DNA from: Austropuccinia psidii
Lineage: Eukaryota > Basidiomycota > Pucciniomycetes > Pucciniales > Sphaerophragmiaceae
DNA: 64,000 nt
Direction of reading: 5' to 3'
NCBI GenBank assembly: GCA_023105745.1
Contig: JALGQZ010000009.1
Span: forward strand, 39,799,359-39,863,358
The position numbers and the translations under genes are program-made. This document shows positions 32,600 to 60,407 of the stretch, piece after piece. Below the pieces are notes generated by a model, which had not been told where the DNA came from, searched no databases, and saw only the letters and a list, made by a program, of their open reading frames with translations. Each line of letters starts with the position of its first letter. Within the stretch, counting starts at the first letter, position 1.

Positions 32600-32620
32600 T
32601 ACCCTCCCTCTAAAAAAGGC
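32600..32620 (-). promoter_or_regulatory. Polypurine tract of element B
   Basis: The minus strand reads ttttttagagggagggta directly before the LTR. Confidence 0.85.
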
Positions 32621-36719: not shown

Positions 36720-38471
36720 TTACCCTATATTAGTCCTCTTCCTTATGTCTTTTAAGGTGTTGGCTATGTCATCTAGAGTGCAATTCTGGTTGCACCTGCA
36801 TTTTACTGCATGCTCTAGTTCTCCTGGCAGTTGTTTCAGGAGTTTGTGATTCCTCATTTGGATGTTCATCTGAGGATCAATGGCTTTGAGTCTTTTAGAC
36901 TGTCTAAGACACCACTCATATGGATCTTTGTCCACAAAGTATTTGTCATTTTCAAATGACATGGTCTTTTGCCATATCCAAGTTCCATTATTGTACTTTT
37001 GGATGATTTGACTCTTCCACCATGGCCAGTTTCTTCTGCCATGGATTTCTTTCATTTCTGTGTACCATATACTTGCATGACCTTTAAATGCAGTATTCAA
37101 TCTAGCAGTGATCCAGTAGTCTGGTATGCTTGGTACATCAATGAAGAGTCCATAAATATAATCTATGAGTTCCATATGATCATATTCTTCTGTTCCAGAG
37201 AATTTGGGCCAGTTTGAGGCCTCAGGAAGCTGTTTCAAGGCTTCCTTCTTCGAATAAGACATGCCATCTCCATCTTGGTATTGTGATGGGGATCTTGCCT
37301 TATTCATCAACATGGCATCTGGTTTGATGTCATCTGGTTGATATGGATTCTCCATAGCTTGGCCTTGTGGCTGGGGCTTCAAGCTATGATAGGCATTAAA
37401 CAATTTGTTAATGTCTTGATCCAGACACTCCCTGTCCCTTGTGCTGTGGTGTTGTCCTTCAAAGACTATATTCAGTCTTTTGTTGGTTTCTTCAGAGGCT
37501 TTGCTCAGTTGAGCATATCCTTCTTGAAGATTCTTAACTATTTGTTCCAGGGAGGCTTGAGTTTGTCTCATCCTCTCTTGGCTAGCTTTAATTTCTGCAA
37601 ACTGCTTTGCAGATTGTTCAGCATATTGGGACATTTGTAACCACAGTGTATCACTGTTGATGTTACTCTCAGATGTGACAATGTTATTTTCAGTCTGAGT
37701 GGGGGTAATGTTTCTATTACTAGGACTACTGATTCTAGAGTGGTTTACAACTACTTCTGGTTCTTGTGTACTTCTTTTATCAAATCTAACAGCTTCTGGA
37801 TCATGGGGTCTGACTGTTTCCTCCTCTGGTTGAAGGAGGTTTTGTTCTTGCCCTTGTTCCCTTGTCTTCTCCTGGAAACTTCCTGGAATTGTGAAGAATG
37901 GTCACTCTTGGCCACTGATCTGCTGGTTTCTGAATGGTGTGAAGCCACTGGAGAGCTGATTTGGCCTGCTCCTTGTGAACATGAAGGAATCTGAGTAGGC
38001 CCTGTCTGGGTTAACTGTTCTTCTATAGCTTGGATAGTGGCTTGATTCTCCCTTATCCTCTGTGCCCTTGCCTCCAGGAGTCTGTGCTGCCTGGTAGGAT
38101 TCCAACCTTTGGTGATTTCCATAAGGTCTTTGAAGTCTATCTCTCTGAGACAGATCTTCTGGCAACTTGATCCAAGTTCTGCCCAGTGAGTTGCTAGGTT
38201 GAACCTCTTGTTGTCCATGCTCCATTGAAATAAGTCTTTGAGGAGTTGGTGGATCTGAAGAACTTGATCCATATCCTTCCAGTCCTCTGGTTTGAGGTTT
38301 CCGTTGAATTGGAGTGTGAATGGCAAGGTTGATATTATCTCCCTCATTGTTTTTCCATCCACCACTGTGTCCAAGGTGTCCTCTTCCTGGTCTTCTGGTT
38401 CTGGACAATCCTTCTCTGTCCTCTGGCTGGTTCCTTTCAAAGCCAAGATCTCTGAGGTATGCAGGGGACAT
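36720..38471 (-). pseudogene. gag: Element B gag, starting inside a candidate intron
   Basis: One frame runs from the ATG at 38471 (MSPAYLRDLG) to the capsid region, with a TGA at about 37900 and a TAA at about 36719. The N-terminal 190 residues are polar and low in hydrophobic residues. Next come a coiled-coil-like stretch (QFAEIKASQERMRQTQASLE) and a capsid homologous to the one in element D (NWPKFSGTEEYDHMELIDYI, NWPWWKSQIIQKYNNGTW). The ATG lies 20 nt before a 3' splice site, so only unspliced RNA keeps it. Confidence 0.85.
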
Positions 38472-38819
38472 ATCAGTGTTTGCAAGCAGTCAAAAACTTT
38501 ATGTTCTTAGGGTATTTACCTTTGACTGTGCCTTGTACAAATTTATTGTCTGCTGACTTGGGCAGTTTGCCTTTGGAAGTTACAACTGGGTTAATAATTG
38601 TAATCTTTCCTGTACAAGTGGTTAAGGTTGGTTTACCTTGTATAGAAGCAGAGTTTCGTGGTTTTCTATTCCTCTGAGTGGCTATTGGTGTCCACTTTTT
38701 GGCTGTAATGAGGCCTTCACTAAGTCTTTTTCCTTTTCCCTTGCTGCCCTCTGGTTCTGAGGGTGTCACTGGTATGTTGGCCTGTTACTGGGTCTCAAGT
38801 GGTATGAAGTTTTCTTCCA
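37751..38819 (-). pseudogene. Element B overlapping spliced frame (accessory protein, function unknown)
   Basis: Candidate exon 1 is 38819-38520, with conserved SEGLITAKKWTP. Candidate exon 2 is 38451-37751, about 230 codons open in the +1 frame relative to gag. The intron 38519-38452 has donor aaag/gtaaat and acceptor tacctcag. Joining keeps the frame, with a split codon of one base plus two. The exon 2 product has a conserved block around DLMEITKGWNPTRQ and a basic C-terminus (SRRRQGNKGKNK, then IQKLLDLIKEVHKNQK). I recognise no family. A homologous frame in the same position exists in element D. Exon 1 has one in-frame TAA (38785-38787); element E has TCA there. It could be a nucleic-acid-binding or regulatory protein, but that is a guess. 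Confidence 0.65.
38452..38519 (-). other. Candidate 68-nt intron that contains the gag ATG
   Basis: It has GT-AG ends and a length typical of small fungal introns. Removing it deletes the gag ATG (38469-38471) and joins exon 1 to the overlapping frame. The donor aaag/gt is kept in element E (plus strand ggtattcaccttt at about 48520). Confidence 0.6.
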
Positions 38820-39413
38820 CTGAATCAAAGCAGGAAAAAAGAGGGCTTATGTCAGTTAAGACTTCTTAAAAGGCTGGTTTTGCATGTCTAAGAATGGCCT
38901 CTGGGCTTGTATGTTACTACAGATGCCCTTGTATGATGACAATGTAATTGAATTAACAATTCCACGTCAAAAATACAGCTTACTGATATATGGTATACTG
39001 TTTGTATGCCAATATCTCACAGAATACTTGTAATTAGCAAGTATAATCTGTTAAAAGAATGGTGTATTACAGGGTAATTGAGTTAACAATGTGCCCAAAC
39101 ACGCCTCAACTGTTGGTTTATCAGTATGAGTTGTCTTAATTCACTTAAGAATTAAGGCTGTATTGATGGCTTAAAGTGTTTTTATATACAAAACACGCCA
39201 AAAATACTAGTCTTGTGGTTATAAGCCACGTGACAGATACTCTATAATATGGGAGTATTTCAAAAATTAAAGCAAAAATATATATAAAATATATTTTTAA
39301 AGAGAAAATGACGCCTAAGAAAAGTAAAACAGATGTCAATAAATGATAAAGAAGAGAAAAACTTACTTGTAAGGTCCAAAAAATAAGTAAAAAACACGGC
39401 CAGGCCCCCAAAA
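38820..39413 (-). other. Leader of element B with primer binding site and candidate leader intron
   Basis: There is no supported gene. A strong donor (ttacaa/gtaagt, GT at 39366-39365) and an acceptor (gattcag at 38820) bound a candidate 547-nt leader intron. The upstream exon ends in A and the downstream exon begins TG, so splicing would create an ATG. Confidence 0.5.
39395..39413 (-). promoter_or_regulatory. Candidate primer binding site of element B
   Basis: On the minus strand the LTR is followed by ttttgggggcctggccgtg. The same sequence lies at this place in element D and, with one change, in E. It has the form of a tRNA 3'-end complement beginning tgg; I cannot name the tRNA. Confidence 0.65.
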
Positions 39414-40848
39414 TGTCAGGCTGAGTCTATATTGAGGTGGTAATAAGAGTATTTACAACTAGAAATATGACTGTGACACGTAGAAAATTGATTTAAAATA
39501 AGGGTTTTGGATTTTTAAGATGATTTATAAGATAATTAAGGGGTTCTACTATTGGATTATAGTGGTGGTGAGCGCTACTGAGAACCCAGGGTGCAATCTT
39601 ACCAGTTGGTTACTATAATAAGAGTTACAATAATTAACTATATAACTATACCTGTTTATTACCCAAGAGTAAAACTGTTTTGGACAGTTTACTACGTAGG
39701 GTATTCAAGAGCAGGATGAGGAGATGATTTTGGCTGTGAGAAGCCCTCCTTTTATCCTGAAATTGGGGTGGAAAGGGTACTAGACCTTTCCACGTAAAGG
39801 AAGTGAAGATTTTCCCTTTCTGTTACTGGCTTATGGTTTGCAAACAGCCTGTATAGCCTGTATTGGGCTCAGATGTGGTTTTGAAACAACATCTGGGCGG
39901 TTTTCACCAATACAGGGTGAAAATTTTCATCTGGGGACCTCACAGCCTGATTCTGACGTGTATGACGCGTAGAATGCTGTACAGAAACTGTATGGGACCC
40001 CAGTATTGACTGACATATGAGGTATTGAAGTAAAAACATGCTTCTTTGTCTATTTGACACCTCATATTCATGGTTATGGGATATTATCCCATGGTAAGGC
40101 TGTATATGACAGCAGGTGGGACTTTGACCTTAAATCAGCTATACCTTTGTCAATTCTTGAGATATCAACCTCAAAATTGGTTCAGTGTGTAGCCCTGTAT
40201 GTGCTCTACACAATGGTACCTCATTTGATATGGGTATTATTAAGTATGGCAAAGTTATCCCATATACAAGAATTTTGTACATTTGCGTGTTTTGAGCAAA
40301 AAGCTGTATTGAGCTTGTTTGCCCCATAACTTCTTCTGTAGTTGAGATATGAGGAAATGGATGAAACCATCAGATAGCCCTGATTGTGCTCTTTCCAAAA
40401 ATACCCCACTTCAGGTATCCCACACTAAAAATGTAGAAGTTAGATGAGAGGTGAATGTTTTGTTCACCCTTATTTAGCCTGAAATTGACCATAACTCCAG
40501 TAATATGAGTGCTAGCTCAGTTTGGCTGGTACCATTGAATATCCCTGGCTTAGAGCTTTATTTTGAATACCCATTTGATGGGGTTAAGCCTCTCCTTCTA
40601 GATTCTAGATGAGAGGTCAAAATTAAGGTTTATGCTCAGCACTAACTTTGAGAAGGAATAACTTTGTTATTTCTTGTCCTATGGTGATGGGACTTATATT
40701 TTCAGAAAGGGGTGAGTTTACTCTTTTTTTAATACCTTTTGAGCTTGTTTGGCTCAGTTCCATGTTTTGGTGGTATCTTGGCTATACCATTGGTTTATGG
40801 TATTTTGGCTGTCATGCTTGTGCTCTGGTTTTGAGTCACAGGCTGACA
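39414..40848 (-). repeat. 5' LTR of element B
   Basis: The plus strand starts tgtcaggctgagtc and ends cacaggctgaca, collinear with 31177-32599. Confidence 0.95.
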
Positions 40849-41318
40849 TTCAGAATCAGTCAGAAAGGCATGAAACCATAGAAATAGACTATAATTTGTT
40901 GTAATACTGTTATAAATCAATTTTGATTGTTTAAATCCACAATCTATCCACCAAATTTCTCTACCAACCCTTTTCAAGGTTTTGTTGGAGTATTGGTGAG
41001 TGGTTTTAATTAATTATTAAATATTTTCTCTAGTATTAGTCTCCTTCAATAATTATATTTATAATTATTTTAGTAAGAAATAATTATATTATTTTAATAG
41101 AGAATTTGTATTATTAAATACTGCTTTTCATTGATTCTTGTAGACAATTACTTCTTACTGTTATAATCACTAGTAGTGTATAGAAAGTAAAAGAAATAAT
41201 AAATTAATTAGTTATTTAATTGTGGTTATAATAATCTTATTATTAGATCTCATAAGAGCCGTCATAGTACTGTTGATTAATAGTAATATTATCAAATGTT
41301 TCATAGACACATATTACA

Positions 41319-42312
41319 GTGGGGAAGATGGTATTTACCATTTTTTGATAATGAGATGAAGAATTCTTAATTACAAAGGGTATTCTCACATACTCATAAA
41401 TACCACAAAATTGCATTTCTTAAGTGAAATTCTGATACTCACTTCTGAAACTTTGTCTCATACTCTTTCATGTATTTCAAGGTGCCAAGACAATGAGTCT
41501 GAACATACAATTATGTCATAAATATAAGTGATGACCCATCCTTCAGAAAATCATATGCAGAAGATGGTATTAATCAGTATTTGATAATTAGATGGATAAT
41601 TCTTAATCCCAAAGGGAATTCCCAGATACTCATAAATACCACAGTGAGTGATAAGTCTAAGTAATTTCTTGGCTTTAGGCAGAAAGCCATTGTGATTAAA
41701 GACTTTTAATGCATCCATTGAATTTATGTAATTGGATTTGGATGATTGTGTAAAGCTTGTTGGACTCTAGAAATTGGATACCTATCTGGAATTGTGTAGG
41801 TATTTAATGCTCTAAAATCTCCAACCATCCTTTATTTATCATGATACCAAGGAATAATGACAGGAGTTGTAACTTCAAATTATTAAATATAGACTGATTT
41901 ACTCAGTACACAAAGTTTTATCAACTCTTAGATATGTTTTTCCAAGGATCCTCTAGCTCTGGGGATTTCTGGGTAAGCTGGTATTACCAGTACTGGGAGG
42001 TATGTCCTGTCAATATTCAAAGTAATATCAAACTCATGTCCTCTAGCAGCACCTAATGGTTCATTATCTGAATAAAAAAAATTCTTATATGTGTAGAACA
42101 GTTTCATAAGCTCTTGCCTCATTTTGGCCGATAATTCTGGATATTTCTCCACATATGAATCTTTATTTAAAGATACCACTGATATTTGTTTGGAAATATT
42201 GGGAAAAAAAACTTGTCTCTTTATCTTTCCAATTGCAAAATATCTTTCTTTTTGGTTATTTATGTCAATACCATACATCTTTAAGTAGTCATTACCAAGA
42301 ATGATATGCTGA
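41319..42312 (-). pseudogene. pol: Element C second fragment: RT and protease end, with internal duplication
   Basis: It continues element C after the nested insertions. 41324-41404 repeats 41568-41648 (gaagatggtatt to cataaatacca). So a unit of about 245 bp (29621-29780 plus 41324-41404, and again 41404-41648) was duplicated in tandem before the solo LTR inserted. Further on are RT fingers and the segment MYGIDINNQKERYFAIG to NEPLGAARGHEFDI (42278-41928), matching the protease-RT linker of element D. Stops abound. Confidence 0.82.
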
Positions 42313-43787
42313 TGTCACAAGGGATCTTCTAAGTGAAGAGGGCATGGCACTCAGTAAATTGGGAATCAATTATGGAGGGCTCAAGTGGGATAATATAAAG
42401 GGGAACACTTAAGAGTGTAATAAAAATGAGATTTTCAATGAAATAAATATACTAAAAGAAGCCCAAACAAATAATAAGAGTAAATAATGAAAGAGCCAGC
42501 CACAAACAAGTTCAAGTCCCCTGTTTCAACCTATCATCAAGAAAGAGAAGGGTCAATAAGTATATGGCCACCAAAACTCTACTTAAAAGATGGGGAAATG
42601 CAAATACTACCTTAATAGCAATAAATATAATTTTCCAAAATAAGCAATAAGATTATTTATCAACCAATAGAGAAAATATCTGAATTAATTGGGGAAAAAT
42701 CCCCAAGGGGAAAAACAAATGCTGGTATATGTGGGAATCCACAAGCTCTGATCCAAAGAGTAAAGTCTCTTGAGAAGAATCTTAATTTGAATTGCTTTTG
42801 ATAATACAGTCCCTGTATGGATGTACAGGGCCTGTACAAGAGGTGTGGTGGAGCTGAGTTATAATACAGTTTCAGAAAAGTGTATTAAATAACTTATTGG
42901 CAAATTCAGCCTGTAAAAGTGTTGACAGACTGTATTGATGGCCCAAACTGTATGAGTGTTTCAGAGAGAAGACTTTCTGAAACTGAATTCTCATACACAC
43001 AGTGAATTGCTGATTTGGTGAGTTTGAGTGCGTTTAAGGTTAAATAACCTTACTCCTGATAGTGGCTGTCAAGATATCACCCTCTTGCACCTTCAGGGCT
43101 CCTGAACCCCATCAAGCCTTGACACCCTGGAGTGTCATCTCCATATCCCCACATTTTTTTGAAAAATATTTAAATTCTAACCTTCAGTCCTCTTGATAAT
43201 TATCCTGAGAATCCCCTTCATTAATTAATCCTTGTTCTATTTCATTGACAACGTTTCCCCTTCAATAAGTAAGTAATGTCAATTTTCTTGAGTTATAACT
43301 CCTTTCCTGAGTATTTTCTGCTTAATTTTCATTTTCTTTGATTGGAATTGGGGTGTATCCCAAAATAATGGCTACCAAATTATTCAGCTTGAAATTTGAT
43401 GAATAATGGTTATATGATTGTATAACCTTGCAAGAATTAGCCATACTGGTCTTTGGAGGCCTTTTCTTGCATCAAACCTAGGTTATGAATCTATTTATTT
43501 TACTGACTGAGGGCTCTTGTGCCCATGGTCTTGGAAATAAGACCAAATGCCCCTTTGGGGTCATTTGGGGTGCTTGTGGTTCTTTTGGGTCCCTGCAATT
43601 TTTATAGCCCTTATTGAAAATTTGGGCATTTTGGGCATTTTAGGCCATTTGAAGTCGTTATGCTACACAACCCATGGTTTTTAGGGGTTATTGAGGTCCC
43701 CCTGTTCCCAAATTTCCTGGTTTTCCAGAGGGTCTAGGGGACCAAAATGGGAAAGGTTGACCCATATGGCCTGGGCCCATTGAAAGG
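42313..43787 (-). repeat. Reversed A-like LTR joining truncated C and E
   Basis: It starts tgtcacaagggatcttc. Its reverse complement follows the element A LTR order (tggcactca near the start, tatggccaccaa, the CC/GG-rich half last). The right boundary is not sharp. Left of it is element C protease sequence; right of it is element E RT sequence (acccatgcggcatat). The flanks do not belong to one target, so it is not a simple insertion. Confidence 0.6.
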
Positions 43788-43805
43788 GAACCCATGCGGC
43801 ATATG

Positions 43806-45545: not shown

Positions 45546-48500
45546 ATATGATTCTGAGTATTTTCATGGAGTTTTTTTAACTCTGTTTTTGTGGAAGCCT
45601 TCAATACAATCCATATTGGTAATGTATTTAGCTTTCTACAGCTTATCTAGAGCATCGGGTATCCTTGGTATAGGGTACCTGTTAACTTTGGTGCAGTTAT
45701 TCAGTGCTCTGAAGTCTCTACACAATTTAGAATTGCCATCATGCCAATTGATAAGTAAAGGTGTGGCTATCTTCACTATTTCATTGTGTCCTATGTTTCT
45801 GATGACATCTATATCTAGGAGTTCATTGACATGCTTTCTAATTTGTTTCCTAGTTTCTGACCTGTTGGATACTGAGGTCTTCTGAGCATGGGTGGATAAG
45901 TTCTTTACACATATAGATATAGCTCTATATAATGGCCTCTAATTTTTCCCAAAGGCTCTTCCCCTATGGCAAAGGATGGTATATTCTTCCTCAGAACCTT
46001 TAGTAAACTAAGTTTCTGTTCACTGGTTAGGTTAGAACTGAATTGACTCTCTTTGAAGTCATTCAGTAATTCTTCTTAGGGGTCTTGATTAGCTAAATTG
46101 TATATATCAAGTGAAAATTTCTTTTCCTTGTTTGTGCCTATTTTTACTATTGTGAATATCAATACCATACATCCTTTGGAAGTGTGTTGCCAGTAAGAAA
46201 CCTTGGATGTGGGAATCTTCAAGCACCACAAACTCTGGGTTAATTCTTATATTACCTTCCCTGTGGGGTATAATTATCTCTTTGATAACAGTCCCAATCA
46301 ATTTCACATTTCCTGATGTACTTTTGAAATTCATTGCCTTAGTTGGCAAACGTTTCTTTTCCCAATTTGGGAAATGTTTGTCCAGATATTCTCTGGCCAC
46401 TATTGAGAAGTGTGCACCACTGTCACTGATAAATGGGTGTTGAGCACTTCAAACAAAAACAGTCATCTTAGTGGCTGTCCCATGAATGTATTCCAATCCT
46501 TTAGTTGGTTTGACCAGGAAGGTCTGTGAATCTTGTGTGTGTGTTTGCACAAGTTTTGGCTTGCAGTGTCTTGTGGTAGTCCTTCTTCTAACTTTATGTC
46601 CTGAATTTCTGGTTGTGTTTACTCTTGGTACTCCACCAGGAATTCTTCTATTTGATCTTTGTCATAATCAGAGTTTTCTCTGATGGAAGCACCCATAGAG
46701 TCAAATTTAGAATACTTTGCCTGGATGTCTTCTTCTGGGAATTTCTCAATGGAATAGATTTTTTTCTTGGGAGAGTTGTTAGCATATGGGTATGTTGACC
46801 CACAATTGTGACAAGAGTTCTTCTTGTTAGTCACTTCTGCCGATTTTTTTCTGGGTTTGTCTTTATTTTCAACCCTGGAAGGCTGTTTCTCCCTGAACCT
46901 ATTGCCTCTATATGGTGAATATACCCCCATGTTTTTCCTTTTCCTTACATCTTGCAAGATTTTGGTAATGTCATATTGAGTGAAGCTTTGGTTGCACCTG
47001 CATTTTACCGCATGCTATAGCTCTCCTGGAATTTGTGTCAGGAGTTTGTCATTCCTAATCTGAATGTTCATATGATGATAAATGACTTTAAGTCTTTTAG
47101 ATTGTTTCAGAAACCACTCATAAAGACCTTTCTCCACTTAGTACTTTTCATTTTCAAATTACTTTGTATTTTTCCATATACAGGTACCTTTGCTGTACTT
47201 GTGCATTATCTGACTCTTCCACCATGGATTTCTTTGATTTCTGTGTACCAAATACTAGGATTTCCTTTTAATTTTGTATTTATTCTAGCTGTAATCCAGT
47301 GGTATTTTATATTTGGAACACCAATTAGTTCCTTATAATAATATTCTCTTATACTAGAGAAATTTGGTCAATTTGAGGCTTTTGGAACTTGTTTCAGTGA
47401 TTCCTTCTCTGAATAAGTCTTCTTATCTCCATCTTGGTATTTTGATGAGGATCTTGGCTTATTCTCCAACAAGGAATCTGGTTTGATGTCTTCCTGGTGG
47501 TATAAAGTATTATCCAAAGGATTTCCCTGTGCTTGGGGCTGTATGTTTTGGAAGACATTGAAAATTGTTTCATGTCCTTATCCAGACATTCCCTGTCCCT
47601 TTTGCAGTGGTAATGCTCCTCTAAAACTTGGTTTAGTCCTTTTCAGTCTCTTCTGAGGCTTTCATCAGTTTAGAATAGCCCTCTTGAAGAATATGGATGG
47701 TTGTTCTTTTTAAGGTCATTAGTTGTAACATTACATTTTTTTCATGGAGCTTTTGAAAATTTTCTTTCTTTTTTTCTGAAAATTGGGACATTTGTAACCA
47801 CAGTTCATTTCTCTTAAGGTTAATCTCAGGTGGTACAGCACTTTGTTCATTCTTAGTGAGGATAATATTTCTAGTAGTAGGGCTGCTGATTCTGTCAGAG
47901 GTATTTACAACTATTTCTTCCTCTTGTGTACTTCTTTCACCAAGTCCAACAGCTTCTGGATTGTTGGTTCTGAATCTTTCTGCCTCTGGTTAAATTAAGT
48001 CTTGTTTTTCCCCCTTGATCCTTGTATTCTCCTGGAACATACCTGGGATTGTGAATAATGGTGACTCTTTGTCACTTATCTGCTAGTGCCTGAAAGTTTT
48101 GAAGCCACTGGGGAGTCTGCCTTTTTTACTGCTTATGAGCCTGAAGGAATCAGAGTATGACCTGTCTGGATAGATTTCTCTGGTATGGCTTGGATAGTGG
48201 CATTATTTTCTCTTATCCTGGATGTCCTTTCTTCCTGGAGCTTGGACTGGCTGGTGGGATTTCACCCTTTGGTGATTACCATAAGATCTTTGAAGGGTAT
48301 CTCTTTGAGATATATCTTCTAGCAGCCTGCTACATGTTCTTCTTAATTTGAAGCTAGGCTGAACCTCTTCTTTTCCATGCTACATTGGAGCAAATCTTTG
48401 AGGAGTTTATGGAGCTGAAGAACTTGATCCATATCCTTCCAGTCCTCTGGTCTGAGGTTCATATTGAATTGAAAGGTGAATGACAGTGTGGGTATGATTT

Positions 48501-48722
48501 CTCTCAGTTCTAAGGGTATTCACCTTTGACTGTAGCTTGTAAAAATTTGTCATCAGACGCATTAGCAAAATTGCCTTTAGACGTTACAACTGGGTTAATT
48601 ATAGTAACCTTCCCCATAAAAGCTATTAAGGTTGGTTTAACTTGTATGGAGTCAGATTTTTGTGGTTTTCTAGTCCTCTGAGTGGAAATTTGTGTCCACT
48701 TTCTGTTTGATATGAGGCCTTA
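45546..48722 (-). pseudogene. pol: Element E degenerate gag, protease and RT fingers
   Basis: RT fingers lie at 45600-46000. The protease end is 46400-46107 (AREYLDKHFPNWEKK, IQGFLLATHFQRMYGID), the gag end 46957-46619, capsid and N-terminal gag on to about 48510. The knuckle reads CHNCGSTYPYANNS, so its His and last Cys are lost. Near 48510 a deletion relative to B removes the start of exon 2 and most of the small intron with the gag ATG, while the donor remains. Confidence 0.8.
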
Positions 48723-50709
48723 TGTGAGCCTTTGAGATATGACCACATATCCATAAATGTCACAGCAAAATTTCTGTAATAATTATACTTATAATAATTA
48801 TGTCAAAAATTAGTAAAATACCATAAATAAGTAAAAAATCTAAATTAACTCAGAATCTAATGAATAAACATGTGAAATGAATGACACCATTAGATTCCTC
48901 ATGGTAAAATACACATATGTCATTTTCATGGCATATCTGAAAAGTCAATAATTACTGAAGTATACGTAATGATATCTTAAAAAAGGTACAAAAACTCATT
49001 TATCTCAGAAACCAATGAAACAATATTTAAAATGAATTGTACCATTGGATTCTCCATAAACCTTTACACATAAAACAATTATATAGCTAATCTCCAAAGT
49101 CAATACTTAAGGAATCAAGCTGAATATATGCACTTTTTTGGTCAGCGCATATATTCAACGTTTTTAGCTAATATCTCTTGAGATATACAATATAGAGAGA
49201 TAAACCAAAAATAAAGTCACCATGTAATTACTGTAAAGATACAGATATGAAATTTATTTCACAAGTTATAAACAGGGTTAAAACTTGTAATGAGTTATTG
49301 AATAAAATCAATAGAGCTGTTGACCACTTTGTTGTGAAAGTGGTCCAAGCTTAAAAATAAGTAGACAGTTAGATTCTACTAGTTCATTTGTGAAGAATGA
49401 TCCAATTTGTATTACAATATTCAAGGTATAACCCTTTGAAATCATGGTTTGAAGTTTAAAATATTAAATTTTGACCGAAAAGATGAGTTACAAGGAAAAT
49501 CATCAAAAATAGAGTTTTGATTATGTAATGAAATGCTGTTGGAAGTTTGATAAGGACATGCAGAGCTATCAGAATCCACTCTAAGAATAGGTGTAGCATG
49601 TATAACCTAGAAGGTATTAATGATCAAAGTTTAAGCTTAAATTTGATCATTTATGATCACTGACTGTAATCTTATTTTAAGTTTAACAGTCATATAAGTG
49701 ATAAAACTGATGAATACTATTATATTATGATTAATACTGATAAACTAAACAAAGTTTAGGCTTCTTTCTAGCCTATGATGTCATTAAACGTAGAGCTACA
49801 GTGATAACTCTAAATAATGGTGTAATAATGGGGTAAGATGGTTTTATCATGATGTAATAATAACTAAACCTTAAAATATTGATCACTTCTAGTAGAAAGC
49901 ACAAGTACACGTCTACTAGAAGCCTTCTGGACTCTAGAAGGGAGGTATTTACTATAAATAGAGCTCTTTTTACTCTATTTTCCCCTCAGAAGCTTACAAA
50001 ACACTAAATAATTAAAACAAAAAGGTAATTTCTTTATTCTTTATATATAAAACTCTTATATTATTAAAGATCAAAGCTCATTCTTATCATAATCATCATT
50101 CTTGACGTTATTACTTCAATTATTTAACTGTTTTGTTTAAATTTCTGTTAAAAACCTCAAATCCACATAAAATCAAGATAAATTGTAATTTCTCTTAATT
50201 TTTATTGTAAATACAATATAAATAAGTTTTATTTATATTTTTTTGGCGTAAAATCATTCAAAATTATTATATTAAGTGTTAACAGTAGGTTATTTATTCT
50301 TACTATAATATTTTCTCTCTATTATTACTTTAATAATTCTTTAATAAATATAAATAGTATTTATATTAATTTATAGCTTTAATATTAGTAATATTATTTC
50401 TATTAATTGTTTTTTAATAATAAAAAACAATTTTCTGTGCCTTTATTATTTGTTGGTAACAATAATAAAGTTCTTTTAAATATATGAATTATCTTATATT
50501 AATATATTTATTTATTATATTATTTTTTAAAATATAAATTATATTATTATATTCATTTAATAATATAATTATTTTTATGCCATAATTATAATAACTCTTT
50601 ATTATTATAATTTTTTTTTATCTTATTTATTTTATTTATAAGGACATTCATAGTACAATAAGCAAAATATCAGTGATTTTTACTTATTGTTTCATAGTCA
50701 AACCTTACA
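48723..50709 (-). repeat. Solo LTR of the D-like type, reversed, in the 5' part of element E
   Basis: It starts tgtgagcctttgagata and ends tttcatagtcaaaccttaca, matching reversed D LTR ends. The flanks cctta and ctttc are each one change from ccttc, the base order element B has at this point. Element E sequence resumes on the right (cactgttcctcttcccttttccc). Confidence 0.8.
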
Positions 50710-51416
50710 CTTTCACTGTTCCTCTTCCCTTTTCCCTTCTGCACTTCTGTGTTTGAGGGTACCACTTATGTATTTCCCTGTGACTGCGTCTCAAGTGGTA
50801 TGCAATTTTCTTCCACCAAAACAAAGGATGAGGGCTTATGTCAGTTAAGACTTCTTGTAATGATATTTTCATGTCTAACAATGGCCTCCAGTAAAATATA
50901 TGTCTATATTGTGCCCTTGTATTCTGATGTATAATTCAAATTATAAATTACTTGTCAAAAACACTGTTTTGTGGATGGATTGTCTACTACTGTATCCTAA
51001 TATCTGACAGATTAAGCTGTAATTAACAAGTATAATCATACAAGTGGTTCTTTAATGAAAAATTGAGATTATCAATATACTCAACAATTCCTGTGAAACT
51101 GTAACTCATGGTATGGATGTCTTCTATTTAAGTAAAACAAACATTTAAAGGGGTCTTGGTATTTTGATATCAAAGAAACACCCAATTTGGCCTGTGGTAA
51201 TTAAGTTATTATTAAACCATGTCAAAAATGAAAGACACAGTGGTATAAATTATACACCATTGGAAAAAATAGGAATATATTATATTTGTTAAAGGTACTT
51301 TTATACCAAAAATAGTAATGTTGAAACAAAATATAAGATGAAAATAAGACAGTACTCACTTTTTATGACAAAAGGGTCCAAAAAAAAGTCCAAAAAACAC
51401 AGCCAGGCCCCCAAAT
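50710..51416 (-). other. Element E leader and upstream exon remnant
   Basis: 50710-50818 matches exon 1 of the spliced frame of element B (CIPLETQSQG in the same frame, with no stop where B has TAA). A candidate donor (aaaa/gtgagt, GT at 51359-51358) sits where B has gtaagt. The matching acceptor AG is mutated to GG. The primer binding site is at about 51398-51415. Confidence 0.6.
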
Positions 51417-51917: not shown

Positions 51918-52157
51918 TGTCAGGGTGACTCTATGATATAGCTTCAAAATGATAATAGAAACTATAACTCTGAGTGTGACACAAAAATGATGATGATATT
52001 TTAAAGTGAGAATATGAGTAAAAGGGCTATACTAAAATAATTTAGTGATGGTGAGTGCTGCTGATAGCCCTGGGTGCAGTTTTTGTCTGTTGGTTTACAA
52101 TAACAAACCCTACAATAATTAAACTTATAATTATACCTGTTAAATTCTAAGAGTACC

Positions 52158-54345
52158 TGTAAGGTTTATCTATGAAACTCTTGATAATAGTAGCAAAATC
52201 AAGAGTACTATGACTGTCCTCAGTAGAAATATATAATATAACAAAATATTATAACCACAAATTTAAATATGATTATTAAAAATAATTATATAAAAAAATA
52301 AATTTAATTATTATTATAAAAATATAATAATAAAAAATAATAATAATTATAATATATTAGAATTATTCTATTATTGTTATAGTAACTGACAGTTATAACA
52401 ATAAGAAGTGTAAAGCTCTTAATGAGACAATTACACGTGGAAAAAATGAATATTAGCCACTTATAAATAATATAAATATTATTTATAAAAGAATTCAACA
52501 CACACTGTGCAGAAGTAATTGTTATAGAATCAAAATTCTATATAAAAAAACTATTACTAGATTAAAAAAATATAGAAATTTAGAGAAAACTTACTTATAA
52601 TATTTATTTAATAAAACAAGTCAAACAACAAAAGTTATTATATTAAATAATAATTATAAGTTAAAAACACGCCAAGAATCAATAATTTTAAAGATAAAAC
52701 AACATTTTATAATAAAAATTAATATTAAAGAGTTTTTAAGAGAAATTTGTGGATTTTAAAAGATATTTAAGATGATTCATTTTATATAATAAAATATATT
52801 ATTGGTGATTACAACAATAATCTAAATTCTATGATTTCAATTATTTAATTTTAATTAATAAAGAATAAAATAACTTAAGAATTACTTTAATAATAAGATT
52901 TTATACTTAATAAAACTTTACCTGTTTAAATTTCCAATATGATTGGATTGATATTTGATGATGGACAAAAACAGTGATGAAAAGACTCCTTTTATGTCTT
53001 CAAAGCACCTCTCATGACTCATAATGGATCTAGAGGACGTGCTCAGGTCAAAACTGAAAAACCATGCTTAAAAATAAAGTTCTTAACTTAAGGTAACTTA
53101 ATTTTAATTCCAATTTAAAGTTAACAGGGTTATTCTTAACTCCATGTAACTTTGATCCTCATTTAAACTAATTATCTTAAGTTTTTAATATAAATAAACT
53201 TATTTATCTTGAAGTTAATCACATGAACAACTTAAAAATGGAGTTTCAAGCAGAAATCTCTTAAACTCAATTTTTAATTAATTTTTAAAGAAATTATAAT
53301 TTTCTTTGAGCTTTAATTAAAAGAGTAAATTTCCAAGCTAATTACCCAGGAAATTTATTTATAAAAGATACATAAAATTTGATTTAAATCTAGATAATAT
53401 TACATTTTAAGTTGTGTGAAATGTTCAACCAAATCCATTAAGAATTGTATTTTTAATGAATTTGTGAAGTTATTGCTATTTTTCCACGTAAAATAGCAAT
53501 ACACACTAAACCTTAAGTTTTGATAAGGTTTGAATTCTTGTAACCTTAAAGTTTTAAGCTTATTTAAGCTTTTTAAGCTTAATTAAGTTTTGACAGTTCT
53601 TAAAACCTTGAATTCAAGCCTGCATATTGGGATTTACCCTCTGTCAGTTTGAAATGCCTGTCTAATTTGGGATAAAATCAGTTTAAACTTTAAAGTTGGA
53701 TCAAAGTCTAATCTTAAAGTCTAAATAAGGTTGAAAATCCTCCAATACAGGTGGACAACCCTAATTGAATCCTTTCAGATCCAAAAAGTTGGGTACCCCA
53801 GCTCTATTTGGTCTTTTTCCTTTGTCCCACCTTCTTGCATGGATTTTGCCCTTTTATTTATTTAAAGCCATACTATGGCCTTAAACCCTTATGAATTGAG
53901 CTCACCCAGGATTTACATTCTGTATGGCAAATCCTTAACCAATTCAGTAAATATACACCACACCTCAATTTTAATCAAAATTTTGGTAAGCTTCCATAAA
54001 CCTTATGCAACTTTAAATTTAAGCTTATTTAAGCTTGAATTTAACAATTTCAAAAAAATGTTAAAAAAGCTACATTAGTACTTTGAGATTCTTAAATCTT
54101 CTAATAACATAAGAAATAAGTGTTTTTGGGTATAACATCTTATGGATGTACCCTAGGTTATTTTTGGTGTAGAATCCAAAAATGACATAATATTTATAAC
54201 TTTGTTTATCTAAAAAAAAGTTATACTTATTTTTTGTTATTTTTTATTTTAAATTCAATTAAAAAGTCTGTTGAAGACAATTTTAACTGTATATAAAGTT
54301 ATTTTTGGCCTTATGGGTATGTTATACATACCTCACAGGCTCACA
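52158..54345 (-). repeat. 3' LTR of element D
   Basis: It starts tgtaaggtttatctatg and ends cacaggctcaca on the plus strand. It is very AT-rich, with repeated aagctt-type palindromes near 53550-53590. The open frames 52304-52501 and 53875-54078 are low-complexity and not supported. Confidence 0.95.
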
Positions 54346-54369
54346 TTCCCTACCACCAAAAAAAAATTG
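54346..54369 (-). promoter_or_regulatory. Polypurine tract of element D
   Basis: The minus strand reads tttttttttggtggtaggga next to the LTR. Confidence 0.8.
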
Positions 54370-54475
54370 TACCACAATTTTTCTTTTGTAGTATACCCCC
54401 AAGTTATTTGGGGGGGGTATAATCCACTGTCCAACCTCTTTACCTATACTTTTTTAAGTATGTAAAACACACAAT

Positions 54476-57400
54476 TCAAACTTTATTGAGCAAGGATCTC
54501 CTCTCATGTCTGAATCTTCTGAGAAACCTTTGGGAATCAGGTATTTTGCTTTCTACAATCCACTCATCTTCATGTTGTGGATTTTTATACCTGACTAAGT
54601 ATTCTCTTTCATTTTTTCCCCTAAGTCTTCTTTCTTTCACGACTTTTAGTATCTTTTTCTCCTCACTTTGATCTAGTGGGGGTACTTTTAAGGGTGTTTC
54701 ATTTCTCAAAGGAAATAATTCCTTATCACTTGAAGTGTAATGCTTTACTAAACTGACAGGGAAAGTTGGATGTTTTTTTTCTAGTTCTCCTGACAGTTCT
54801 ACTTGTACTGCATTTGTCCCATGAAGGGCTTTAATAATAAATGGTCCTGCAAAGGAATCTTTCAATTTCTTTGGGCCTATAATGTTATTAAAGTTCAAGG
54901 TTGAAGCTAGTATTAAGTCCCCTACTTTGAATTCTGGGGTCTTATGACTTTTATCCCATTTCTGTTTAGCATATTCAGAGGCATCATTCATGCTTTGATT
55001 TGCATGATGTCTCACTTTATCAAGCAATAACTTAAAGCTTGAAGCAGTTTGATGAATATCAATCAGATCTTTTTTCAAAGTATCAATTGGAAGTTTGGGG
55101 TTCCATCCTTTTTCCAACATTGCAGGAGTCTTGCCTGTTGAAGCATGGATGGAAGTCTTGTAGGCTAATTCCAATGCTGGTATAAGAGTACAACAATCAT
55201 AGGTAAAGCCATCAGAATCTTTAAACTTTAAGCCATAAGCACAAAATCTGCTGATCATGTCCTCAAGGGTTTGAATCATTCTTTCTGCCAGTCCATCTGT
55301 TTGCGGATGGTAGGAAGTTGAGAATGATAGTTTTGTACCCAAAAGCTTATGTAAATTAGTCGATAAGGCTGATGTAAATTTTGGGTCTCTGTCACTAATG
55401 ATGTTTTTAAAGAGACCAGTATGGGATATTACTCTATTCCAGAGCAAAAGGGCTGTATCCATAGCTGTGTCATCTTTGTGACATGGTAAAAAGATTGGTG
55501 TTTTGCTATATCTGGCTACAATAACAAGACATTAATTGTAACTTTTATCACCTCCAGGTGGTAAGGCAGTTACCCAATCCATGTGAACCACTTCCCATGG
55601 GGTACTTGGTTCTTGAATATGGATAATTAAACCAAATCTTTTACTAGTAGCTTTATTGGCTTTCTGGCATCTATCACAACTGTGACAGTACTCAATGACA
55701 TCTTTCCTCCAAGATGGCCACCAGGCACATGTCTTAACTCTTTCCATAGTTCTGTCTTCAGACAGATGTCCAGAATATATGTTATCATGGCATTCTAGTA
55801 GTATGGTGTTAATGAACATTCTACTACATAGGACCATGACACATGTGTGTTTAGATCTATGATATAGTATACCATCAAACAAATGGAATCTCCCATTATC
55901 ATGATATGTTTTCCAAATATCATCCAGAGAATTAGCCAAGGCTACATCTTTGCAATCTTTGTCAAGTAGAGCAGTAAGAATATGACAATTCTCATCTTTC
56001 TTAAAGCTTTCTCTAACTTCTTCAAAGAATTCTGTTCCAACATCCGTGGTATTAATTCCTTCAATTGGAATTTGAGGTTCTGCACTTGTAGGAACATAGG
56101 CAGGGTTATCAGGTGTATTTGGTAATGCCCATCTACTTATGCCATCAGCATTCTTATGAATATTTCCAGCTTTATGTACTATGGTCATATTTCCTCTATA
56201 CTCCTGTATAGCAATCTGCCATCTTAACATGTGTCTGTTTGGAGTTTTCATGTTAAGAAGTGATTTTACTGCATTAAAATCAGTAATTACTTCAAACACA
56301 CTATCATCAAGATAGTAATGAAGTTTTTCCAAAACCCAAACAAGGCAAAGGCACTCCATTTGGCTAGCTCCATATGTGGCCTCAGTAGGTTTAATTTGTC
56401 TTGAAATAAAAGAAATTGGACCTTCATAAGGTTTGTCATTGACAATTTGAACCTGATGAAGAGCAGCTCCTAAGCCTTCACCACATGCATCAATATACAG
56501 CTTGAAAGGAAGTTTCCAGTCTGGCATCAATAATAATGGTGCATTGGTCAAGGCATACTTGATTTTCTCATATGCTTGAATCCTCTCCTGCGTCATTTCA
56601 AAAACTGCTTGTTGATCACAAATTCTGTATAATGATCTGGCATGGATAGCAAAATCTTTAAGGTGTTGCCTGTAATAACTGGAAACCCCTAAAAAAGACA
56701 TCATTTCTTTTTTGTTCTGGGGCATTTGTTTCAGTAAAACTGCAGCCACTTTGTTTTTGTCAACACCAAGGCTCAGTCCTGAGACTACATGTCCTAGAGC
56801 TTTCAACTCATGAAACCCAAAATTACATTTTTTAAGAGATATTTTCATGTTCACTTGAAGAATTTTCTTAAGTACTAATGAAAGTCTCTCTAAATGTAAT
56901 TGCCAGGATTCTGAACAAATGATAATGTCATCAATATAAATTATTAACCATCCTTCTGACAATTCATGTGGGAAGATGGTATTCATCATTCTTTGATAAT
57001 GAGACGGTGCATTTTTAATACCCAAAGGCATTCTCAAATACTCATAAATCCCACAATGAGCAATCATTCTCAATAATTTCCTAGCATGAGGTGTCAAAAC
57101 ATTCTGGTGAAAGCCTTTTAGAGCATCCATGGAAGTAATGAATCTTTCTTTGGATAATAGAGTCAAAGTCTCATGAATTCTAGGGACTGTATACCTGTCT
57201 GGGATAGTATAGGTATTCAGTGCTCTAAAATCACCAACCATCCTTGACTTATCATTATGCCAAGTAATGATTACTGGAGTTGTGACTTCCACCTCCTCAT
57301 TGTGTCCAACTTTTCTAAGAACTCCCAGTTTCATTAGTTCATTAATACGATTTTCTAATGCTTCTCTAGCACTAGGGCTAGCTGGGTAAGCTGGTCTTCT

Positions 57401-58108
57401 TAATAGTGGCAGATAAAGCCTTTCCACATTAAGCATAATGTCCACCTCATGGCCTTTTATTGCCCCAAGTGGTTCATTATCTGAAGCAAAGGCTTCCCTG
57501 TATTGAAATAAAATTTCAATAAGCTCTTCCTTCATTTCCAGTGTTAATTCAGGACTAATTTGTGCTTCAATTAATTGACTTGACACAAATGTTTCCTTAT
57601 TAACATTTTTTACTTGTTTAATGACAGTAATTTCTCTTTTTTCTAGAGGAAAAGCAAATTTTTGTCTTTTATTTTCCCCTATAGTGAAATACCTGTCTTT
57701 ATGATTATTAATATCAATACCATAAATATTGAGATAATCATTCCCAAGTATAAAGTGTTGTGAAGTACAATTATTCATAACAACAATTTCAACTTTCAAT
57801 CTTATACTTCCTGCAGGATGAGGAAATATGATTGCTGTGTCAAATATACCCAAGGGGTACATACTTTGGCTAGCACTGCTGAATTTTATACCTTCAATTG
57901 GCATTAATTTGTCTTGCCAATTGGTATAAACCTTGTCAAGATAATCCTTTCCAACACAAGTGCAAAAAGCACCTGAGTCAAGGTGTACCTTGGCTTCTGG
58001 GTTTTTTATCACAATATTAGTGACACAAGATGAACCAGATGTATAACATTTAACTCTGGCAGGTTTGGTTTTTTGCATTTTACCATCTTGCACATGTATG
58101 AGATCCAT
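54476..58108 (-). pseudogene. pol: Element D pol: protease, RT, RNase H, integrase
   Basis: Protease [13 protein letters not shown] lies about 30 residues in. RT has [35 protein letters not shown] and the catalytic [12 protein letters not shown]. RNase H has [14 protein letters not shown] and [17 protein letters not shown]. Integrase has HHCC ([23 protein letters not shown]), [20 protein letters not shown] and [10 protein letters not shown], then a tail ending with [17 protein letters not shown], a chromodomain-like fold remnant. Only one stop (TAA at about 55529) splits it into 858 codons and the 54476-55462 part. All catalytic Asp/Glu I checked are present. IVDR of the family reads VARY just after the stop. 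Confidence 0.95.
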
Positions 58109-58228
58109 ACATTCATCACTATACTGTGGTAAATGAGTGTGTACCTCAGTTACTTCAAAAGAAACATGAATGTTTTCTATACTAAGCTCCTCTGGTACTT
58201 CTTCTTCTTCTGAAGGCTCAGAATCACT

Positions 58229-60243
58229 TTAATGTAAAGATACATCAGTTGTTTCTTTTGTGTCTTCCACTTTTTCAGCATTTATCTCATTGATTCTTTT
58301 CTTCTTTGGGAAAGTGTTTGCTAAATGAGATGTGCTTCCACATTTGTGACATTTCAAAGGAAGTCTGTCTTGTGGCTTATTTGGTTTTGAAATTGGTCTC
58401 CCATTAGTCTTGGTGTCTATTGGGGATTTGGACCAATTTATTCCAATTTTTGTTCTAGTAGTGATGTCCTCCATAGCATTGATATAATATTCTGTAGAGC
58501 AAGGCTCAATAAATCTGCTTCTTATAGAATGCTCAAGGTCACCACCACATTTTCTTAATATCCTTTTATGTACCATTGTTTCAGACATATCAGGATGAAG
58601 GGCAGTTAATCTGTCCTTCTGTTTAAGAAACCAAGACATGGGCCTGTCCCTCTCAATATTAAAAATGGCTTCTTCAAAAGAATTTTACATTCTAAATCTC
58701 CAGGAATCATTAGCTCATTTGGAAACAATTTTTTCTTTCCACCAAGGCCAAGAATATTTACCATGGTCTTGTCTCATTTTGTAATACCATTTCTTTGCTG
58801 ATCTGGTAAATAATTAGTGTAATCTGGCACTTATGTATTCATCTGGTATGTTAAAGTCTTCCTTAAAAATATCAATTGTTTTCATAAATTCCATATGATT
58901 ATATTCTCCTTCACCATTGAAGGTTGGTCATTCCTCTAATTTTGGAGTTCTTTGAAATTGCAAGCAGTTTCCACCTCATTACTTGAAATGGTATGATGTA
59001 AATCATTAAGCACATTTCTGTCAAGAATTGGTGTGGATTTACTTGGCAATTCATTTTTGAGTGATATATTATTAATACGTGATTGAATGTCTTCTTTCAA
59101 TTCAAGTCTTGCTTTATCACTTTTTTCCAATTGTTCTTGGAAAAGAGCTGCATTGTGACCAGTTGAATTTTCCAAGTTTTGAACTTGTAATTTCAATTCT
59201 CTTAACTGTCCAGTTATAAAAGAAATTGAATTGTCATCTGGTTGATTGAGCAAAGTAACTTTAGACTCAATTCCTGCACAAATTTGCGTCAAAGACGCAA
59301 TATTGTCTTCATTAACATTTCTAAGGCCAATAATGGTCTTTTGTTGTTCTTTCACTTGTAATATCTCATTACCCAACTTTTGTTGGATATACTCAAATGT
59401 TTTAAACTTTGTTGTAATTTCTTTATTACAAGATTCAAATTGAGTTACAAGTTTAACAAGATCTATTTCTTTGGGAAAGATTGGCTCAATCTTTCCTCCT
59501 CCTTGTTTTTGAATTCCATCAGAGTTCTTGCCATGTTGAACACATTGTCCATGGCTGTCTTTTTCTTCTTTGGGATTCTGTAATTCTGAGGGTCAGGCTT
59601 GTTCCATTTGGGCTTTGCCTTTCCCTTTGCCTTTTGCTTGCCCTTCTGATTGGTCTTTGGGGCTTGCTTTGCCTTGCTTGGCACTTGTTGAGGCGGGGTT
59701 TTGCTGGTGGATGCTTGGGGAGCTTCCACTGGGCTGTTTTCCTTGCCTTGGGCCAACTTCTTCTTCTGATCTTCTGATAACATGCTTTGGTTTTTCAACC
59801 AAGATTTTATCTGTTGGACTTGTCCTTTGCAAGACATTGGTGTCCAACCCTTCAGAAGATCTTCTGTCTTTTCTGGCCCCATGAATTTCTTCACCTGAAG
59901 ATAAGAGTTCATGGAGCCTATCCAAAGACTTGGGAGAAGATCCCACTCTTGCTGTTTGGCGGCCATAAACCAGTTCTTGTACTGAGACTGGTAAATCTCC
60001 ACTGCTGCCTGTTGGAAATGATTCAGGTCTAACAGCAATAGCAGTTATGTCAGCTTCTGGACTCTCAATAAGAGGTTCAGAGGTGCTGGCTAACCTTTGG
60101 GAACTGGTGGAAGTTCTGGCATCCTCCATTTGTGCCTCTCCTCTGAGCTGAAATTCTTGTCTTTTTTATTTGTGACTGGAATGTCCTGGTCCAGATCCAT
60201 TTGATTGGATGGAGTAATTACTTCCACTTCTAGTAGGAGTCAT
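58229..60243 (-). pseudogene. gag: Element D gag, starting inside a candidate intron
   Basis: The start ATG at 60243 (MTPTRSGSNY) is 14 nt before a 3' splice site. In-frame TAA at 60166 and TGA near 59591 interrupt the polar N-terminal part. A coiled-coil-like part follows (frame 59376-58936), then capsid with at least four stops and a frameshift near 58945 (EYNHMEFMKTIDIF, SWPWWKEKIVSK), then 58639-58229. The knuckle CHKCGSTSHLANTF has Phe for the last Cys. Confidence 0.85.
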
Positions 60244-60407
60244 TGCATGTCAATTTTAAGAAAAAATAGACTAGAATGGATTGAATTCACCTGCTGGACC
60301 TTTAAAGGGTTCTTTGGTTATCAAACCCCTTGGTGCTGGGCTGGTTTGAATTTCAATACTAGACTCTGAGGCTTCAGAGTCTGAAGAGCTGTCTCTGATT
60401 GATGGCA
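59463..60407 (-). pseudogene. Element D overlapping spliced frame (accessory protein, function unknown)
   Basis: Candidate exon 1 is 60407-60291, containing SSSDSEASESSIEIQ and RGLITKEPF. Candidate exon 2 is 60229-59463 in the +1 frame relative to gag. Two stops lie near 60080 and 60050; then 191 codons are open, including EDLLKGWTPMSCK, which matches DLMEITKGWNPTRQ of element B. A Lys-rich tail follows (KGKQKAKGKAKPKW, then DNVFNMARTLMEFKNKEE). The intron 60290-60230 (cag/gtgaat, cctactag) has the same phase as in B. The family is unknown to me. Confidence 0.65.
60230..60290 (-). other. Candidate 61-nt intron that contains the gag ATG of element D
   Basis: It has GT-AG ends with a ttgac branch-like sequence. 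It includes the ATG at 60243. The position, phase and size match the intron at 38452-38519. Confidence 0.6.

What the first reader, a model, noticed from the sequence alone, without database searches (positions are those of the whole stretch)
37751..60407. Two Gypsy families share a spliced accessory frame that overlaps gag, with the gag ATG inside the intron
In elements B and D a second long frame overlaps the 5' part of gag in the same +1 register. In both, a 61-68 nt GT-AG intron joins an upstream exon to that frame in the same phase (one base plus two). In both, the gag-pol ATG lies 14-20 nt before the 3' splice site (38471 and 60243), so splicing would remove it. The products share GLIT in exon 1, a KGWxP block in exon 2, and a basic C-terminal tail. 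This suggests a splice switch: unspliced RNA for Gag-Pol and genome, spliced RNA for an accessory protein. The sequences and frames are seen directly. That splicing occurs, and that the protein is made, is inference. Overlapping accessory frames are unusual for Ty3/Gypsy elements.
Basis: partly seen in the sequence, partly recalled or inferred. Interest (0 to 1): 0.87.

Follow-up and report, generated by a model that had tools for sequence, protein, structure and literature searches.

The report
Splicing builds a retrotransposon's start codon
In a family of jumping genes in what is likely the myrtle-rust genome, a predicted extra gene that overlaps the capsid gene has an ATG that appears only when two pieces are joined; intron-free copies in the same genome show those joins directly, and the protein is predicted to help the element control its own RNA.

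Summary
The host is likely Austropuccinia psidii: every named protein among the 120 listed in each of three searches is from it. In family B, 16 junction-selected copies were examined; all 16 lack the 68-nt intron, so splicing is recorded in the genome. Eight of them also lack a 547-nt leader intron and a 66-nt in-frame intron; in all eight the leader's last A meets TG and makes an ATG, and in two natural copies the frame stays open to its normal end. Family D has a further 66-nt intron (absent in one copy). A young third family, E, has the same layout, with introns 2 and 3 missing in several copies. In D and E the split A|TG start is predicted only.

Old, shared changes favour sites silent in the accessory frame (B 52:46 against 204:58 for singletons, p=7e-6; D p=0.009; weaker in subsets). 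The overlapped gag frame shows no such constraint.

Not supported: homology of the B and D proteins (hhalign probability <1%). The window copies themselves are broken. Splicing is well supported, selection moderately. The protein's role, proposed as a CERV/Rev-like helper of intron-retaining genomic RNA, is inference. Eight literature searches showed no report of this in rust elements.

The parts
39414..40849 (-). Element B 5' LTR (partner 3' LTR 31177-32600)
   Evidence: self-BLAST of the window, 95.3% identity
39394..39413 (-). Element B primer-binding-like stretch (TTTGGGGGCCTGGCCGTG), upstream of donor 1; limits approximate
   Evidence: directly after the LTR; present in copies
38820..39366 (-). 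Element B intron 1, 547 nt, ACAA|GTAAGT ... TTCAG|TGG; removal joins A(39367) to TG(38819-38818) = ATG
   Evidence: absent in 8 copies, ATG at the junction in 8 of 8; donor 20 of 21, AG|TGGAAG 21 of 21 copies
38520..38819 (-). Element B accessory exon 2 (MEENFIPLETQ... once spliced; window copy has a private TAA near 38787)
   Evidence: open in 17 of 21 copies; all 20 other copies read TCA at the window's TAA codon
38571..38636 (-). Element B optional in-frame intron (66 nt, 22 codons) inside exon 2
   Evidence: a 66-nt gap there in 9 of the 16 intron-2-less copies, 6 exact and 3 placed 2-4 bases off by the aligner
38452..38519 (-). Element B intron 2 (68 nt), holds the gag ATG 38471-38469 and a CTGAT branch-like site
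   Evidence: absent in 16 copies: exact GT-AG in 14, in L075 and L088 68 nt but split by the aligner; conserved in 21 copies
37751..38451 (-). Element B accessory exon 3, overlapping gag in the +1 frame
   Evidence: open in 18 of 21 copies; selection on this frame
36723..38471 (-). Element B gag frame (window copy interrupted by TGA 37904-37902)
   Evidence: zinc knuckle and pol domains follow
60953..63102 (-). Element D 5' LTR (partner 3' LTR 52158-54345)
   Evidence: self-BLAST, 92.8% identity
60408..61369 (-). Element D predicted intron 1 (962 nt; ATAA|GTAAGT in the LTR to TCTAG|TG); would form ATG and remove the primer-binding-like stretch
   Evidence: only GTAAGT in LTR plus leader, preceded by AA; same donor in L090, L091; acceptor TCTAG|TG 17 of 21 copies; not seen removed in any copy
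60291..60407 (-). Element D accessory exon 2
   Evidence: open in 18 of 21 copies
60230..60290 (-). Element D intron 2 (61 nt), holds the gag ATG 60243-60241
   Evidence: sites conserved; one possibly spliced copy L091, ambiguous
60095..60229 (-). Element D accessory exon 3
60029..60094 (-). Element D intron 3 (66 nt); carries in-frame stops of the accessory frame, length a multiple of 3 so gag can read through
   Evidence: absent in L113; donor 20 and acceptor 21 of 21 copies; database gene models use it
59463..60028 (-). Element D accessory exon 4 (core with KGWTP, basic stretch, C-terminal helix)
   Evidence: helix prediction on a relative
47908..50819 (-). Element C, a decayed B-like copy: accessory remains at 50819-50706 and 48734-47908, split by an insertion
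   Evidence: tblastn, BLAST with B

Best explanation
These Ty3/Gypsy elements carry a predicted accessory gene, overlapping gag in the +1 frame, that is likely expressed from spliced RNA: in family B removing the leader intron creates an ATG (A|TG) and removing intron 2 deletes the gag ATG, and genomic copies lacking these introns show both joins directly. Unspliced (or intron-2-retaining) RNA would serve as genome and as Gag-Pol messenger; fully spliced RNA would encode the accessory protein. Shown: intron positions, LTR-flanked intron-less copies, the junction ATG in 8 B copies, a frame open from that ATG to the family's normal C-terminus in natural copies L077 and L079, and the selection signal on the accessory frame. 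Inferred: that those copies were made by reverse transcription of spliced RNA (the only simple route), that the protein is made, and that families D and E use the same split start codon. Least certain: the protein's job. I commit to a regulator of the element's own RNA, working like CERV of C. elegans Cer1 or retroviral Rev: predicted to act on RNAs that keep their introns and allow them to be exported, translated and packaged.
For: Splicing: 15 junction hits, control 0, all 15 fetched, plus L075 found through the leader junction. Of these 16, 16 lack intron 2 (14 exact GT-AG by the aligner; L075 and L088 lack 68 nt but were split by it), 9 lack the 66-nt intron, 8 lack the leader intron; all 8 read ...AA|TGGA at the join. 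Complete or nearly complete 5' LTR upstream in L081, L082, L083 and L087, so they look like reverse-transcribed elements. The 15 that could be placed are scattered on the copy tree, at least 6 changes of state. E: intron 2 exactly absent in 7 of 7 fetched of 8 close hits, intron 3 in 6 copies. D: intron 3 absent in L113. Split start in D and E: an AA|GTAAGT donor and an AG|TG acceptor in the right frame. In D the donor lies upstream of the primer-binding stretch (in E of its like), which would explain why intron-1-less copies were found only in B. Selection: with a control downstream of the overlap in B where gag position 3 is favoured. Database gene models: 25 of 120 listed B-like proteins carry the exon 2-3 join, 13 of 120 D/E-like the exon 3-4 join (some may come from intron-less copies). 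Precedent: PMC10309623 (abstract and passages read).
Against: No RNA reads or peptides were available. Intron-2-less B copies were selected by the junction pattern itself. D intron 2 rests on conservation and one ambiguous copy. D/E intron 1 was seen removed in no copy: the 20 fetched of 27 hits (18 of 25 E, 2 of 2 D) were AG-to-AA point mutants; D's TCTAG|TG acceptor is kept in 17 of 21 copies. Ten of the 41 B copies were picked by accessory-protein similarity, which favours a conserved accessory frame; without them the signal is weaker (odds ratio 2.15, p=0.023), and in the 21 DNA-selected copies alone it is not significant (p=0.55, 14 shared changes). In D the codon-position counts alone are not significant (p=0.11; position 3 against 2 p=0.63). 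Several pairwise B comparisons are uniform across positions. The downstream gag control in D/E was inconclusive. The fold models are of low confidence, and nothing in Pfam, PDB sequences or (E protein only) viral folds supports an RNA-export role.
Confidence: 0.72

Rival explanations
1. The accessory protein is a structural or packaging partner of Gag (matrix- or nucleocapsid-like, RNA-binding through its basic stretch), made from spliced RNA, rather than a regulator of RNA export.
For: Helical core, lysine/arginine-rich disordered stretch and a C-terminal helix in low-confidence models; the gene lies at the Gag end of the element.
Against: Making it from a separate spliced messenger that lacks the gag ATG fits a regulator better than a stoichiometric structural part (inference); no sequence or fold match either way.
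Confidence: 0.25
2. The +1 frame is a by-product of codon bias or of selection on gag, and no protein is made.
For: Long open frames can arise opposite biased genes; no protein has been observed; in the 21 DNA-selected B copies alone the selection signal is not significant.
Against: In the larger sets shared changes favour sites silent in the accessory frame and not in gag; D vs E differ at accessory positions 43/36/73, with accessory identity 111/171 against gag 75/170; multi-exon phase is kept and D's stops sit inside an intron that one copy lacks.
Confidence: 0.05
3. The intron-less copies come from chance deletions or gene conversion, not from spliced RNA.
For: L057 and L060 carry imprecise deletions near intron 2, so deletions do occur there; intron-2-less copies were selected by the junction pattern.
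Against: The leader and 66-nt introns, not used to pick the 15 pattern hits, are also absent in 7 and 8 of those 15; exact GT-AG ends in 14 of 16 copies for intron 2; the same kind of loss in E and, once, in D.
Confidence: 0.04
4. The leader-spliced, intron-2-retaining RNA makes a short exon-2 peptide and then Gag by termination-reinitiation, so the switch is mainly about translating Gag.
For: In B the exon-2 frame read into intron 2 ends at TGA (38475-38473), one base before the gag ATG; in E a TGA lies 7 bases before it.
Against: It does not account for selection on exon 3, nor for fully spliced copies; in D the spacing varies.
Confidence: 0.2

Closest known systems
CERV of Cer1, a C. elegans Gypsy/Ty3 element (PMC10309623; abstract and passages read)
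   Same: Accessory protein from a spliced multi-exon mRNA of a Ty3/Gypsy element; one exon in a frame different from gag; gRNA keeps functional splice sites; no homology outside its own group.
   Different: [quoted passage not shown] a split start codon is not mentioned in the passages seen; CERV's export role was tested by mutation, here it is only inferred; different host kingdom.
Retroviral Rev/Rex/Tax-type regulators (recalled)
   Same: Made from fully spliced RNA; basic stretch; overlap with other frames.
   Different: No match to them turned up in Pfam, PDB-sequence or viral-fold searches; position is at the gag end; no response element was looked for.
Copia, BARE1 and EVD spliced Gag messengers (recalled)
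   Same: Splicing inside an LTR retrotransposon changes which protein is made.
   Different: There splicing raises Gag over Pol; here it deletes the gag ATG and opens another frame.
SpIREs of human LINE-1 (PMC5860796; search listing and abstract start only)
   Same: Spliced element RNA reverse transcribed and inserted.
   Different: Non-LTR element; there no accessory gene is opened by the splice (recalled).
Additional ORFs of plant and rotifer LTR elements (PMC7264820, PMC5408684; listings with abstract starts only)
   Same: Extra genes beyond gag-pol.
   Different: I did not read their expression details; a splice-built start codon overlapping gag was not seen in the listings.

Membership tests
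Ty3/Gypsy LTR retrotransposon | Paired LTRs with a primer-binding-like stretch behind the 5' LTR | tested here: met
   LTR pairs 95.3% (B) and 92.8% (D); TTTGGGGGCCTGGCCGTG follows in B and D
Ty3/Gypsy LTR retrotransposon | pol order RT - RNase H - integrase | tested here: met
   D: RVT_1, RT_RNaseH, Integrase_H2C2 in that order in one frame, all above cut-off; B, broken into pieces: RVT_1 fragment below cut-off, then H2C2, rve below cut-off and SH3_Tf2-1 in that order
Ty3/Gypsy LTR retrotransposon | gag with a zinc knuckle | tested here: inconclusive
   zf-CCHC above cut-off in B; no match in the D fragment scanned (window 58232-58684)
CERV/Rev-like accessory regulator | Encoded by a spliced RNA of the element | tested here: met
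   by genomic intron-less copies, not by RNA
CERV/Rev-like accessory regulator | Needed for export of intron-retaining genomic RNA | not testable with these tools
   needs a cell assay
CERV/Rev-like accessory regulator | Recognisable homology to a known regulator | tested here: not met
   no Pfam match better than E=0.0047 among members, none in PDB sequences, none at E<=0.001 in viral folds for the E protein. Filed only as 'works like', not as a member
One accessory protein family shared by B and D | Profile-level similarity | tested here: not met
   hhalign probability 0.7% and 0.56%; D and E are clearly related
[quoted passage not shown]
   the accessory gene lies at the 5' end, overlapping gag

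The most novel reading that the evidence does not exclude
A fungal retrotransposon lineage reads the splicing state of its own RNA through its start codons: each spliced form has one usable ATG (junction ATG for a Rev-like regulator, intron ATG for Gag). In B the leader donor lies behind the primer site, so spliced RNA can still be copied into DNA and the genome keeps a fossil record of the element's splice isoforms; in D and E the donor lies before it, so the accessory messenger cannot be copied.
Probability: 0.35. Interest if true: 0.85.

Novelty: new variant of a known kind. Interest (0 to 1): 0.74.

Why it matters
Accessory genes from spliced RNA are a hallmark of complex retroviruses and, to my knowledge, are described for few Ty3/Gypsy elements. 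This would be a fungal case, in abundant families (6863 and 4683 unconfirmed first-look candidates for the B and D probes) of a gigabase genome, with a start codon that exists only after splicing. Because spliced copies persist in the genome, the element's splice forms can be read without RNA. The accessory frame, not the overlapped start of gag, carries the selection signal, so annotation that leaves such proteins as 'hypothetical' hides a conserved gene.

Tried and rejected
Rejected: homology of B and D accessory proteins. Not found: intron-1-less copies in D and E; the 20 fetched of 27 exact hits are acceptor point mutants, 7 E hits were not fetched. Rejected as off-target: two of the four hits (L076, L078: no match to B) and the two-mismatch group (9 of 17 hits; L114 and L115 checked, 7 not; one close hit also not fetched). 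Little use: Pfam and PDB searches, structure models of pLDDT 57.7 and 66.0, Foldseek against viral models for the E protein only, the bacterial promoter scan of the LTR. Homologues outside A. psidii could not be judged: each protein search listed only the best 120 of 900, 406 and 872 hits; all named ones are A. psidii and one had no name. Literature: eight searches; 'rust fungi, Gypsy, spliced, gag, accessory' gave none. PMC8063080 and PMC12210899 were read as passages only. In one search the two rows with L062 as first sequence have an uncertain phase and are not used. In one search the D exon 2 was started three bases late and exons 3 and 4 were cut one base off, so the first and the junction residues there are wrong; the coordinates above were re-checked. 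In the tree count L057 and L060, with imprecise deletions, were counted as intron-bearing. A checkpoint note says 'over 100 identical copies' for E; the call shows about 55 of 150 rows with one score.
Full report
What was claimed and what is there. The window lies in a 1.015-Gb genome. All named proteins among the 120 listed in each of three searches (of 900, 406 and 872 hits) are Austropuccinia psidii MF-1 'hypothetical proteins'; size and low GC (window 34.6%) fit the published A. psidii genome, which is mostly Gypsy elements (PMC8063080, passages). I take the host to be A. psidii or very close. Elements B and D are LTR elements on the minus strand with Ty3/Gypsy domain order.

The gene model is larger. 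In B the only strong donor match in LTR plus leader is ACAA|GTAAGT at 39366 and the acceptor is ATTCAG|TGG at 38819. Joined, they give A|TG GAA GAA, an ATG in the accessory frame. Exon 2 is open in 17 and exon 3 in 18 of 21 B copies; the window copy has a TAA of its own in exon 2. D has a third intron, 60094-60029, holding in-frame stops; it and B's optional intron are both 66 nt, a multiple of three, so gag (in D) or the accessory frame itself (in B) stays in phase whether or not they are removed.

Genomic copies record the splicing. A search for the exact B intron-2 junction gave 15 places, with none for the reversed control. All 15 were fetched, together with L075 found by the leader-junction search. 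Alignment to the window shows: 7 lack intron 2 only (L053=L080, L054, L055, L056, L061, L084, L086); 1 lacks the 66-nt intron and intron 2 (L085); 8 lack leader intron, 66-nt intron and intron 2 (L075, L077, L079, L081, L082, L083, L087, L088). The aligner placed intron 2 exactly in 14 of 16 (split in L075 and L088), the 66-nt gap exactly in 6 of 9 (2-4 bases off in 3) and the leader gap exactly in 5 of 8; for the other 3 the join is shown by BLAST. The join itself reads ...AA|TGGA in 8 of 8. In L077 and L079 the junction ATG opens a frame to the usual accessory C-terminus. Complete or nearly complete 5' LTRs precede the body in L081, L082, L083 and L087, as expected of elements reverse transcribed from spliced RNA. 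On a tree of 41 copies (L087 dropped as too short) spliced copies are scattered, needing at least 6 changes of state.

Other families. E (P0227-like; L063-L072) is young: 148 of the 150 matches listed have no stop in the accessory match and about 55 share one score. Its intron 2 (65 nt, with the gag ATG) is exactly absent in L063, L065, L066, L112, L116, L117 and L118 and off by one base in L067; its intron 3 (63 nt) is absent in L063-L067 and L117. D gives one copy without intron 3 (L113) and one ambiguous for intron 2 (L091). For intron 1 in D and E no spliced copy was found; the 20 fetched of 27 hits are point mutants. Yet both have an AA|GTAAGT donor and an AG|TG acceptor in the right frame. 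In D that donor lies inside the LTR, upstream of the primer-binding stretch; in E it lies upstream of the same stretch, though E's LTR ends were not mapped. Spliced RNA would lose the primer site and could not be copied. In B the donor lies downstream of it. This explains the contrast but was noticed after the fact.

Selection. In the B overlap (41 copies) singleton changes fall evenly on accessory codon positions (85/96/92), while changes shared by three or more copies fall 25/25/51 (chi-square p=0.011). In accessory terms N:S is 204:58 for singletons and 52:46 for shared (Fisher p=7e-6); in gag terms 197:64 and 79:20 (p=0.41). D (23 copies; L113 dropped): accessory 123:56 against 9:14 (p=0.009), gag 147:33 against 20:4 (p=1); position counts 62/45/83 and 3/6/15, p=0.11. 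Ten B copies had been picked by accessory similarity; without them accessory p=0.023, and in the 21 DNA-picked copies alone, with 14 shared changes, p=0.55. Between families, D and E differ at accessory positions 43/36/73, with identity 111/171 in the accessory frame and 75/170 in gag; B and C differ 33/38/61; several closer B pairs show no skew. Downstream of the overlap B and C differ 68/54/111 by gag position, so gag constraint returns there; the same control was inconclusive for D/E.

What the protein may do. No family match worth naming. Models are weak but agree on a helical core, a disordered basic stretch and a C-terminal helix in both B and E proteins. The B and D/E proteins are not demonstrably related. 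The best functional parallel is CERV of Cer1, made from a spliced messenger and required for export of unspliced genomic RNA (PMC10309623). An element whose genome keeps working splice sites faces the same problem, so I propose the same role; this step is inference.

Standing. Splicing: well supported by genomic copies, untested on RNA. Conserved accessory frame: supported, with the sampling caveats above. Split start codon: shown as sequence in B, predicted in D and E. Protein and function: untested.

Noticed in passing
L063-L072 (E family; places): A young family: 148 of 150 listed matches have no stop in the accessory match and about 55 share one score; it looks recently active.
   Followed up: partly
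L070:995-1120: The primer-binding-like stretch ACATTTGGGGGCCTGGCCGTG occurs twice about 100 bases apart in this E copy.
   Followed up: no
window 38476-38469: The branch-like CTGAT contains a TGA that ends the exon-2 frame one base before the gag ATG (TGATATG); in E a TGA lies 7 bases before the gag ATG. Possible termination-reinitiation.
   Followed up: partly
window 47908-50819: Element C, a decayed B relative, has its accessory exon 2 split by an insertion of about 2 kb.
   Followed up: no
L057, L060: Imprecise deletions of 62 and 71 nt overlap intron 2 and do not have GT-AG ends.
   Followed up: no
window 63300-64000: Resembles part of the B LTR (84%), perhaps another LTR copy cut by the window end.
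   Followed up: no
L092-L109: Acceptor AG-to-AA point mutants in E copies turn the intron-1 acceptor AG|TG into an unspliced ATG in the accessory frame.
   Followed up: partly
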